From: a virus
DNA length: 64,000 nucleotides
Virus record (IMG/VR): IMGVR_UViG_3300034082_003278
Location: 1 to 64,000 of that record
Strand: one strand, 5' to 3'
Shown here piece by piece: positions 13,714 to 32,529 of this stretch (position 1 is its first letter; each line of letters starts with the position of its first letter). The notes below the pieces were generated by a model. It had not been told where the DNA came from. It did not search any database and worked only from the letters and a program-made list of their open reading frames with translations. A program made the position numbers and the translations under genes.

Positions 13714-13715
13714 CA

Positions 13716-13739
13716 AAAAGCCCCTAAGGGGCTTTTTTA
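13716..13739 (+). terminator. Intrinsic terminator
   Basis: AAAAGCCCC, TAA loop, GGGGCTTTTTT: a strong GC stem with a T-tract. It ends the glutaredoxin unit, and its A/T flanks may also serve the convergent methyltransferase gene. Confidence 0.9.
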
Positions 13740-14489
13740 TTATTTCTTAACAAACAAGAAAAACAATCGGTCTTGGTCTTTCTTCATCAACTCTAATGTA
13801 AGTCCGTGTGTTTTGGCCAGTTCGTGGGCTACTTCAAAACTCCAGGGAAATATTTCCACCCACGGACCTTTGTTGGGAGTTTTAACTCCGTCGTGATCTA
13901 GCCCGGGATTGGCCCTCATCCACAGTTTACCTCCTGGCTTCAGCAATTCAACAGTCTTTCGAAATCTAATTTCAATGTCATCGCGACTGTTGAAATTGAT
14001 ACTGCCCAATGCAATGACATGGTCAAATGATTCTGGTTCTACATTGTAGTCAAGAATATCAATCATGAAGTCTGCACAATTGTTATAAGGATCAATACCT
14101 ACTAGATTGGGAATCCTTTCTTTAAATGGATTGTATCCGCAGCCTACATCTAGTACTTTAGCAGGCTTGGTCTTGTTGATTTCGTCAGCGATTCTCCAGC
14201 CGGTCCAGTGATACATGTCGGTTCTGGGTTTCCATGCTTCACCAAAAAACCAAGCCAGGTATTGATCGTCGGTGCGATCGACCAGCTGTGCAACAGTGCC
14301 TGCAACATCAATTGCGACCCCAAACGTGCCTTCGAGGTCTGATTTGAATTTTTGCTTTTTCACAGGAGTCCACGGCAGAGAATCTAATAATGTGTCTGCC
14401 TCTAGCGATTGTCTAATTGCACTGTGTTTGGGTAAATTCCAAGTTTCGTGTAATTTTTTTACAATATGATTAAAAATTTTGCTATTCAT
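13740..14489 (-). CDS. SAM-dependent methyltransferase (class I)
   Basis: 249 residues from the ATG at 14489. A longer upstream frame would run into an AT-rich leader. Motif I is LDVGCGYNPF, followed by VGIDPYNN, a FDHVIALGS segment and the LLKPGGKLWMR motif, the normal order of a Rossmann methyltransferase. Nothing in the sequence fixes the substrate, which could be DNA, RNA or a small molecule. It is transcribed opposite to the flanking genes. Confidence 0.8.
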   Translation of the reverse strand: MNSKIFNHIVKKLHETWNLPKHSAIRQSLEADTLLDSLPWTPVKKQKFKSDLEGTFGVAIDVAGTVAQLVDRTDDQYLAWFFGEAWKPRTDMYHWTGWRIADEINKTKPAKVLDVGCGYNPFKERIPNLVGIDPYNNCADFMIDILDYNVEPESFDHVIALGSINFNSRDDIEIRFRKTVELLKPGGKLWMRANPGLDHDGVKTPNKGPWVEIFPWSFEVAHELAKTHGLTLELMKKDQDRLFFLFVKK

Positions 14490-31621: not shown

Positions 31622-31650
31622 TTGTTTTACGATTGTGATCGTGCTATAAT
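31622..31650 (+). promoter_or_regulatory. Promoter of hsp20
   Basis: TTGTTT 31622-31627, 17-nt spacer, TATAAT 31645-31650. The expected start near 31657 gives a ~60-nt leader. Confidence 0.65.
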
Positions 31651-31658
31651 AAATAAAC

Positions 31659-31716
31659 GTACAAGATGCCTAACGGGTCTTGTTACATAGTCAAACTTGC
31701 TTAATAGGAGAACAAC
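31659..31716 (+). promoter_or_regulatory. ROSE-like RNA thermometer in hsp20 leader
   Basis: The first hairpin is GTACAAGA with TCTTGTTAC (31659-31686, one bulge). A second hairpin at 31696-31710 pairs CUUGCU with the ribosome site AGGAG across a UAAU loop. Its pairs are U-A, C-G, a bulged G, U-G, U-A and C-G. This is the UUGCU/AGGA pairing with one bulged G that defines ROSE elements of small heat-shock genes. Inferred from sequence only. Confidence 0.55.
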
Positions 31717-32172
31717 ATGACTAGAATTACATCACTAGACCTTACCCCTTTTTACCGCAATTCTGTTGGAGTAGATCGTTTGTTTGATCGCATCACCAAA
31801 CAGTTGGATGGAACCACAAACAACAATTACCCTCCCTACGACATTGTCAAGACCGGCAACGAAACTTACGAAATTCGGTTAGCGGTGGCTGGCTTTCGAC
31901 CCGGTGAGATTGATATTGAATTTCACGAAGGTTCTTTAACTGTGCGTAGCAATCGACAGGAGCAGTTGGAAGTAGAGTATCTGCATCATGGCATCAGCAA
32001 CCGCGATTTTGTACGCAGTTGGACCTTGGGTGAATATGTGGAAGTCCAGGAAGCCAACTTCCAAGATGGCATCTTGACCATTGGATTGGAGCGCATTGTT
32101 CCTGAGTCACAAAAGCCCAGAAAGATTGCTATCAACAACCAGATCCCAACGTTAGACAATTCAATCAAATAA
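31717..32172 (+). CDS. hsp20: Small heat-shock protein Hsp20 (IbpA-like)
   Basis: 151 residues. Alpha-crystallin domain ~35-135 (PPYDIVKTGNETYEIRLAVAGF, a conserved GILTIGLER strand near the end). It keeps unfolding proteins soluble for refolding or proteolysis. Common in T4-like cyanophages. Here it lies between ClpX and ClpS and has its own promoter and structured leader. Confidence 0.93.
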   Translation: MTRITSLDLTPFYRNSVGVDRLFDRITKQLDGTTNNNYPPYDIVKTGNETYEIRLAVAGFRPGEIDIEFHEGSLTVRSNRQEQLEVEYLHHGISNRDFVRSWTLGEYVEVQEANFQDGILTIGLERIVPESQKPRKIAINNQIPTLDNSIK

Positions 32173-32226: not shown

Positions 32227-32529
32227 ATGTCACAAATTGAAACCAAAAGCAAAATCAGCGTCAAGTTAAAAGAGCCTCCCATGTATAAGATTATCTACAT
32301 GAATGACGATCAAACTTCGATTGAATTTGTAATCGGCAGCTTGATTGAATACTTCGAGTATGATGCAGTCACAGCCGAAAAAATTACCATGGATATACAC
32401 GGCGCCGGTTCTGCAGTGGTAGCAGTCTTACCTTATGAATTAGCCGAGCAAAAAGGTATTGAAATCACAGTCAGCGCACGAAGCGAAGGCTATCCTTTGC
32501 AAATCAAACTGGAACCGGACGTGGCATGA
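32227..32529 (+). CDS. clpS: ClpS-like N-degron adaptor
   Basis: 100 residues from ATG 32227 (AAGG site upstream). Core pattern PPMYKIIYMNDDQTSIEFVI, then AEKITMDIHGAGSAVVAVLPYELAEQK and a C-terminal PLQIKLEP, matching ClpS order including the NDD loop that binds N-terminal residues. In bacteria ClpS works with ClpA, which is not seen here. It would need host ClpA or a novel use with ClpX. Confidence 0.88.
   Translation: MSQIETKSKISVKLKEPPMYKIIYMNDDQTSIEFVIGSLIEYFEYDAVTAEKITMDIHGAGSAVVAVLPYELAEQKGIEITVSARSEGYPLQIKLEPDVA

What the first reader, a model, noticed from the sequence alone, without database searches (positions are those of the whole stretch)
31659..31716. ROSE-like RNA thermometer in front of phage hsp20
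The leader's CUUGCU (31696-31701) can pair with the ribosome site AGGAG (31706-31710) across a UAAU loop, leaving one bulged G. That is the pairing that defines ROSE thermometers of bacterial small heat-shock genes. An upstream hairpin and a matching promoter give a ~60-nt leader. A phage gene under heat-sensed translation would be notable.
Basis: partly seen in the sequence, partly recalled or inferred. Interest (0 to 1): 0.72.

Follow-up and report, generated by a model that had tools for sequence, protein, structure and literature searches.

The report
Phage heat-shock genes with RNA thermometers
The phage's small heat-shock gene starts with a two-hairpin RNA switch of the kind bacteria use to sense heat; the same switch sits in front of nearly all related phage hsp20 genes and many phage dnaK and groES genes, and its two bulged bases change in step with one residue of the phage heat-shock protein, as if that protein reads the RNA.

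Summary
CUUGCU (31696-31701) faces AGGAG (31706-31710) across UAAU, with bulged G31699, behind a stable hairpin (31661-31683), in front of hsp20. Rfam ROSE_3 is the best match (29.2 bits, E 1.2e-4), but below its cut-off (43). All phage hsp20 leaders examined keep the architecture, in freshwater phages, cyanophages, pelagiphages and methylophages. Hairpin I covaries strongly; the anti-SD helix is fixed. [quoted passage not shown] (2) Both hairpins share one module, U-[bulged purine]-C-Y / R-G-G, and both bulges are G or both A (about 200 G/G, 54 A/A, no real exception), identically for every chaperone gene of a contig (72/72). (3) The type follows one Hsp20 residue (Ala with G, Thr with A; 158/158, 28/28), through three switches on the DnaK tree. 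Phage Hsp20 also keeps the Arg that E. coli IbpA needs to bind its own ROSE leader. Best model: a ROSE thermometer that Hsp20 also reads as autorepressor of a phage chaperone regulon. Heat response and RNA binding are untested; nearest-neighbour folding does not by itself predict melting.

The parts
31645..31655 (+). -10-like box TATAATAAATA (TATAAT 31645-31650; AATAAATA 31648-31655, one base off the T4-type late box TATAAATA)
   Evidence: sequence; same place in 39/72 dnaK and 84/179 hsp20 leaders; -35 poor, not listed by the promoter scan
31661..31683 (+). hairpin I: ACAAGAU-[G31668]-CC-UAAC-GG-GUCUUGU
   Evidence: 10 of 11 pairs of this helix change on both sides across 57 sequences
31668..31668 (+). 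bulged G of hairpin I (first base of the two-bulge code)
31688..31693 (+). UAGUCA, outer arm of hairpin II; can pair with UGACUA 31718-31723 and occlude the start codon (freshwater clade)
   Evidence: MFE; helix 2 (89.6% paired, 3 of 5 pairs change on both sides)
31696..31701 (+). anti-Shine-Dalgarno CUUGCU with bulged G31699 (ROSE motif UYGCU)
31706..31710 (+). Shine-Dalgarno AGGAG
31717..32172 (+). hsp20 (151 aa, PF00011, 62 bits); Ala58, Tyr38 and Arg96 match E. coli IbpA A54, Y34 and R93
32230..32529 (+). clpS-like gene (PF02617, 76.9 bits) downstream; hsp20-clpS also adjacent in L181
29911..31137 (+). clpX-like gene (zf-C4_ClpX + AAA_2) upstream, no ROSE-like leader of its own

Best explanation
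The roughly 58-nt leader of the phage hsp20 mRNA is a short, two-hairpin ROSE-type translational switch. At low temperature hairpin II pairs the SD (and, in this clade, part of the AUG) imperfectly with UUGCU, leaving a bulged G, so ribosomes load poorly; heat melts it (inferred from the tested Pseudomonas short ROSE elements). Hairpin I carries the same bulged-purine module and stays folded. The second, more inferential layer: phage Hsp20 itself binds both modules and represses its own mRNA and, where present, the phage dnaK and groES mRNAs, until unfolded protein titrates it away, as E. coli IbpA does on its ROSE leader. Shown here: architecture, conservation, covariation, spread to dnaK and groES, coupling of bulges and coupling to one Hsp20 residue. 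Inferred: temperature response, RNA binding, regulon logic. My estimates: ROSE-type translational control element 0.93; heat-responsive 0.75; Hsp20 reads it 0.55.
For: ROSE_3 best Rfam match, E 1.2e-4. Model R1, built without the window, finds the window leader (38 bits) and in 485 kb plus 326 kb hits almost only hsp20, dnaK and groES leaders, all on the coding strand; in 12 whole phage records it gives 0-3 hits each. Covariation: 137 cells changed on both sides against 31.6 in shuffles and 15-40 in slid versions; 267 against 78.2 in the dnaK set. Bulge coupling G/G or A/A with no real exception and 72/72 contigs concordant. Only one Hsp20 column separates the types (A 158/158, T 28/28), no DnaK column of 645 does. 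On the DnaK tree the leader type and the Hsp20 residue change three times each, 3 of 3 independent pairs agree. Arg93-equivalent in 184/186 and Tyr34-equivalent in 185/186 Hsp20s; both are needed for IbpA self-repression, Arg93 for RNA binding (PMC10474464). Deleting G39 of P. aeruginosa ibpA, which I count on L062 as the bulged G of UUGCU, cuts induction to 1.4-fold (PMC3669281).
Against: Window leader is below the ROSE_3 gathering score (29.2 vs 43). Nearest-neighbour folding gives little melting for the window leader (SD unpaired 0.47-0.48 at 10-30 C, 0.50 at 42 C; opening energy 1.63 at 25 C, 1.28 at 45 C), and hsp20 leaders do not differ from other AGGAG leaders in opening energy (p 0.82). 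The tested Pseudomonas element behaves better in the same calculation (3.28 at 25 C, 1.98 at 42 C). The AGGAG side is fixed, so hairpin II itself shows little covariation. The G-to-A switch happened only about three times, so the protein-RNA coupling cannot reach significance (p 0.25). The residue matching E. coli IbpA K98, also needed for self-repression, is Ser in the window protein.
Confidence: 0.75

Rival explanations
1. Pure thermometer: the leader only senses heat by melting; the matched bulges and the Hsp20 residue are lineage markers without a protein-RNA contact.
For: Short ROSE elements of Pseudomonas work as thermometers in an E. coli reporter system, and hairpin II alone suffices (PMC3669281). 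Only about three switches of bulge type are seen.
Against: Does not explain why hairpin I, not temperature-responsive in Pseudomonas, keeps and switches its bulged base together with hairpin II, nor the identical type in dnaK, groES and hsp20 of one phage (72/72), nor the single separating Hsp20 residue when no DnaK column separates.
Confidence: 0.3
2. Protein-operator only: the leader is an autorepressor site read by Hsp20 (or another phage RNA-binding protein such as RegA) and has little temperature sensing of its own.
For: Twin bulge code and residue coupling; weak predicted melting. regA lies near hsp20 in several cyanophages.
Against: UYGCU facing the SD with a bulged G is the defining thermometer motif, and close bacterial relatives respond to heat in reporters (PMC3669281). 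For RegA no coupling was tested.
Confidence: 0.15
3. Hitch-hiking: phages picked up bacterial hsp20 with its leader and the element has no function in the phage.
For: Bacterial relatives carry G-type ROSE leaders and Ala at the coupled residue; the Hsp20 protein is clearly related to bacterial IbpA.
Against: Stems covary over deep phage divergence, the leader is kept in distantly related phages, and it stands before dnaK and groES.
Confidence: 0.03
4. Chance resemblance of an SD region to ROSE.
For: UYGCY-N-AGGA occurs in about 3.5% of other SD-bearing ORFs.
Against: All the comparative evidence.
Confidence: 0.01

Closest known systems
Short ROSE-like thermometer of Pseudomonas ibpA (Rfam ROSE_3 RF02523; PMC3669281)
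   Same: 61-62-nt leader, two hairpins, hairpin I with U[G]CC..GGG, U(U/C)GCU facing the SD with a bulged G, small heat-shock gene downstream
   Different: Here in phages, below Rfam's cut-off; AUG can also be paired in this clade; late-type TATAAATA box in many relatives instead of a sigma32 promoter; leader also before dnaK and groES; an A-bulge class exists
E. coli IbpA self-repression on its ROSE 5' UTR (Miwa 2021, cited in PMC8155344; PMC10474464)
   Same: Hsp20 keeps the Arg93 and Tyr34 equivalents; the target would be the gene's own ROSE leader
   Different: Binding by phage Hsp20 not shown; predicted targets include dnaK and groES; a residue that covaries with bulge identity has not been described in the papers read
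fourU thermometer of blyA in prophage SP-beta (PMC10586365)
   Same: RNA thermometer in a phage gene, opened by heat
   Different: fourU, not ROSE; autolysin gene; one phage
lambda cIII leader (Altuvia 1989, cited in PMC10586365 and PMC4166951)
   Same: Temperature-dependent RNA structure at a phage ribosome site
   Different: Two alternative structures, lower expression with heat
Coat-protein operators of small RNA phages such as MS2 (from memory)
   Same: Translational repression through a hairpin with a bulged purine at the ribosome site
   Different: One hairpin, coat protein as repressor, no thermometer; analogy only

Membership tests
ROSE thermometer (short type, ROSE_3) | U(U/C)GCU anti-SD imperfectly paired with the SD in the 3' hairpin, one G bulged | tested here: met
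   cmscan alignment
ROSE thermometer (short type, ROSE_3) | at least one further stable 5' hairpin | tested here: met
   hairpin I 31661-31683; covariation
ROSE thermometer (short type, ROSE_3) | stands before a small heat-shock gene | tested here: met
   HSP20 PF00011
ROSE thermometer (short type, ROSE_3) | reaches Rfam gathering score 43 | tested here: not met
   29.2 bits; gathering scans of the window and of 14 relatives gave no ROSE match. This is a curated score cut-off, not a mechanism
ROSE thermometer (short type, ROSE_3) | heat-induced melting and translation | not testable with these tools
   nearest-neighbour folding inconclusive
ROSE thermometer, applied to the A-bulge class of dnaK/hsp20/groES leaders | U(U/C)GCU with bulged G | tested here: not met
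   UUACU with bulged A in 54 distinct leaders; works like a ROSE element, not filed as one by the strict motif
IbpA-type self-repressing small heat-shock protein | Arg93 and Tyr34 equivalents present | tested here: met
   R 184/186, Y 185/186; Arg96 and Tyr38 in the window protein
IbpA-type self-repressing small heat-shock protein | basic residues at positions 97 and 98 | tested here: inconclusive
   R or K common at 97 (Arg100 in the window protein), mostly not basic at 98; P. aeruginosa IbpA also lacks them
IbpA-type self-repressing small heat-shock protein | binds its own leader RNA | not testable with these tools
   only indirect: coupling of residue 58 with the bulges

The most novel reading that the evidence does not exclude
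Phages run their own heat-shock regulon: hsp20, dnaK and groES (with groEL behind it) share a twin-bulge ROSE leader that the phage's Hsp20 reads through a two-letter code (Ala with bulged G, Thr with bulged A), so thermometer and autorepressor sit in one RNA. This would give a genetic handle on how a small heat-shock protein recognises RNA.
Probability: 0.45. Interest if true: 0.9.

Novelty: new variant of a known kind. Interest (0 to 1): 0.8.

Why it matters
[quoted passage not shown] Here the element is nearly universal in front of phage hsp20, in a gene carried by hundreds of sequenced cyanophages, and has spread to phage dnaK and groES. It suggests that phages time chaperone synthesis by heat or protein damage in the infected cell. 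The matched bulges plus one matched Hsp20 residue make an open question directly testable: what hairpin I of ROSE is for, and what an sHsp sees in its own mRNA.

Tried and rejected
Whole-set MAFFT alignment of leaders misaligned the SDs, so a covariance model seeded with seven well-aligned leaders was used instead; counts on its alignments lean towards the model, and one chance hit (window 13715) is among the 57 rows. Nearest-neighbour melting and opening energies were computed and do not discriminate. Other weak Rfam hits on the leader (preQ1-II, SodC_thermometer, Mu-gpT-DE) have E 0.7-5.9 and were dropped. The R1 hit at window 13715-13766 is a terminator-like hairpin at the end of an ORF, not a leader. 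Two bacterial R1 hits (L265, L266) lie in no hsp20 context and are taken as chance. Searching whole genomes with ROSE_3 was uninformative at genome scale. 'Pseudomonas phage Y7' (L062) is an unverified record whose hsp20 and 69-bit ROSE_3 leader look like host DNA; it was used only as a bacterial control. Nine nominal bulge mismatches were read by eye: three are bacterial leaders with another hairpin I, six are parser misses. A phasin identity for the small extra ORFs was guessed by eye and not supported by Pfam. The AF2 model gives no coordinates here, so distances between Ala58, Tyr38 and Arg96 could not be measured.

Full report
What is there. The window is part of a 65,106-base IMG/VR virus record. 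The ORF at 31717-32172 is an Hsp20 (PF00011, 62 bits), between a clpX-like and a clpS-like gene. Upstream is a hairpin at 31661-31683 with a second bulged G (31668). UAGUCA (31688-31693) can also pair with UGACUA (31718-31723), so part of the start codon can be closed too. TATAAT (31645-31650) places the mRNA start near the foot of hairpin I, but the -35 is poor and the promoter scan did not list it; that step is inference.

Is it more than chance. Rfam's best match to the leader is ROSE_3 (29.2 bits, E 1.2e-4 for 141 bases), aligned over the whole model, but under the curated cut-off of 43; the whole-window scan at the cut-off found nothing. Of 57 IMG/VR relatives of the protein (46 distinct leaders), 56 have UYGCU before the SD, and the 57th has UUGCC. 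Nine GenBank phages do as well: S-PM2, Syn33, S-T4, S-CREM1, S-SKS1, a pelagiphage, a methylophage, C48C1 and AG-345-P14. Of 75 further distinct leaders 71 matched the pattern. The other four are explained: one wrong start codon (L079), two operons in which the leader stands before a small ORF directly upstream (L149, L158), and one member of a group with SD GGAGGU and anti-SD ACGCU, a compensatory change read by eye (L175; also L146, L150, L153). Among roughly 370 other SD-bearing ORFs of these loci 13 match (my count from the list).

Structure and covariation. A covariance model from seven relatives finds the window leader at E 2.4e-7. On 57 matches, 13 of 21 pairs have changes on both sides; 137 cells changed on both sides against 31.6 in shuffles and 15-40 when the partner is slid. 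Hairpin I carries most of it (10 of 11 pairs). The anti-SD helix is 98.6% paired and nearly invariant, as expected with a fixed SD. The AUG-occluding helix is 89.6% paired with three of five pairs changed on both sides. The alignment is fitted to the model, so these counts lean towards it. Energy models are no help: the window's SD is about half open from 10 to 42 C, and hsp20 leaders do not differ from other AGGAG leaders. The Pseudomonas control falls from 3.28 to 1.98 kcal/mol between 25 and 42 C in the same calculation.

Beyond hsp20. In several relatives the gene before hsp20 is dnaK (HSP70, 846 bits) with its own ROSE-like leader. Among 68 distinct phage dnaK leaders, 42 have UYGCU, and the other 26 mostly have UUACU facing AGGAG: the same helix with a bulged A. 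Phage groES carries the leader too (L202 and L261 G type; L179 and L181 A type). L181 is dnaK-groES-groEL-hsp20-clpS. The dnaK-set alignment has 267 cells changed on both sides against 78.2 in shuffles. In 12 whole phage records of 100-383 kb the model finds 0-3 leaders each; the extra ones stand before small ORFs of 88-91 aa without a Pfam family. The window's record has no dnaK or groES, though it may be a fragment.

A two-bulge code. Hairpins I and II share one module: U, bulged purine, C, Y, facing R-G-G. Typed by script, 197 distinct leaders are G/G and 53 A/A; of nine nominal mismatches three are bacterial and six are parser misses (five G/G, one A/A on reading). In 72 of 72 contigs with two or more typed chaperone genes, all have the same type. 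On the DnaK tree the type changes three times, all on well-supported branches. Hsp20 has exactly one alignment column that separates the types: Ala in 158/158 G-type and Thr in 28/28 A-type proteins (window Ala58). No DnaK column of 645 does this. On the DnaK tree the dnaK-leader bulge and the Hsp20 residue of the same contig change together in 3 of 3 independent pairs; three pairs cannot reach significance (p 0.25). On the Hsp20 tree built without that column both change three times, at least two forced. In the sampled bacterial relatives in which leader and protein could be read, nearly all are G type with Ala.

Mechanism. Short ROSE elements of Pseudomonas ibpA are 61-62 nt, two hairpins, and heat-inducible in an E. 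coli reporter system; deleting G39, which I count on L062 as the bulged G of UUGCU, leaves 1.4-fold induction; hairpin I does not melt and its role is not understood (PMC3669281). E. coli IbpA binds its own ROSE leader and represses translation; Arg93 is indispensable and Tyr34 must be aromatic (PMC10474464). Phage Hsp20s keep Arg93 in 184/186 and Tyr34 in 185/186. I therefore propose two layers: a ROSE thermometer, and Hsp20 reading both bulged modules as autorepressor over hsp20, dnaK and groES. The first layer is supported by homology to tested elements. The second is inferred from the coupling, which pure melting does not explain. Residue 58 lies in the loop after the strand 50-56 in the AF2 model (mean pLDDT 74.7); its distance to Arg96 was not measurable.

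Novelty. No paper found in the held library reports ROSE elements in phages; that library is not complete. PMC10586365 counts one phage thermometer before its own. [quoted passage not shown] The window's element is a new member of a known kind in an unexpected place; the dnaK/groES leaders, the A-bulge class and the Hsp20 coupling make the set a new variant.

Noticed in passing
L181:3001-7804: Phage heat-shock island dnaK-groES-groEL-hsp20-clpS; dnaK, groES and hsp20 each have an A-bulge leader.
   Followed up: yes
L179-L258 (dnaK leaders): UUACU class: anti-SD with bulged A instead of G, together with bulged A in hairpin I and Thr in Hsp20; many of these dnaK leaders have an extra GGGC..GCCC hairpin between I and II.
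   Followed up: partly
L322/L323:1562, L326:1562, L149:1248, L158:1239: Small ORFs (71-91 aa) without a Pfam family carry the same leader, alone or in front of hsp20.
   Followed up: partly
L039:2813-2876, L040:2803-2862, L029:3005-3070: Orphan ROSE-like leaders before tiny or startless ORFs, possibly remnants of lost chaperone genes or a moving leader cassette.
   Followed up: partly
L146, L150, L153, L175 (upstream of hsp20): SD GGAGGU with anti-SD ACGCU: a compensatory U-A to A-U change in the anti-SD helix.
   Followed up: partly
L001-L057, L179-L258 (upstream of hairpin I): TATAAATA, the T4-type late promoter box (from memory), or a similar box ends a few bases before hairpin I in about half of the leaders, so the mRNA would begin with hairpin I.
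   Followed up: partly
window:29911-32529: clpX-like, hsp20 and clpS-like genes in a row: a small proteostasis cluster in the phage.
   Followed up: partly
L062 (OQ572409.1): 'Pseudomonas phage Y7' (unverified) carries what looks like host ibpA with a 69-bit ROSE_3 leader; likely contamination.
   Followed up: partly
L068:330-428 (- strand): S-CREM1 has an annotated glnA riboswitch (glutamine riboswitch, 33.5 bits, just under Rfam's cut-off) upstream of hsp20.
   Followed up: no
L238, L226 against L235, L249, L256: DnaK and Hsp20 trees place these A-type phages differently, hinting at exchange of hsp20 with the dnaK leader type following.
   Followed up: partly
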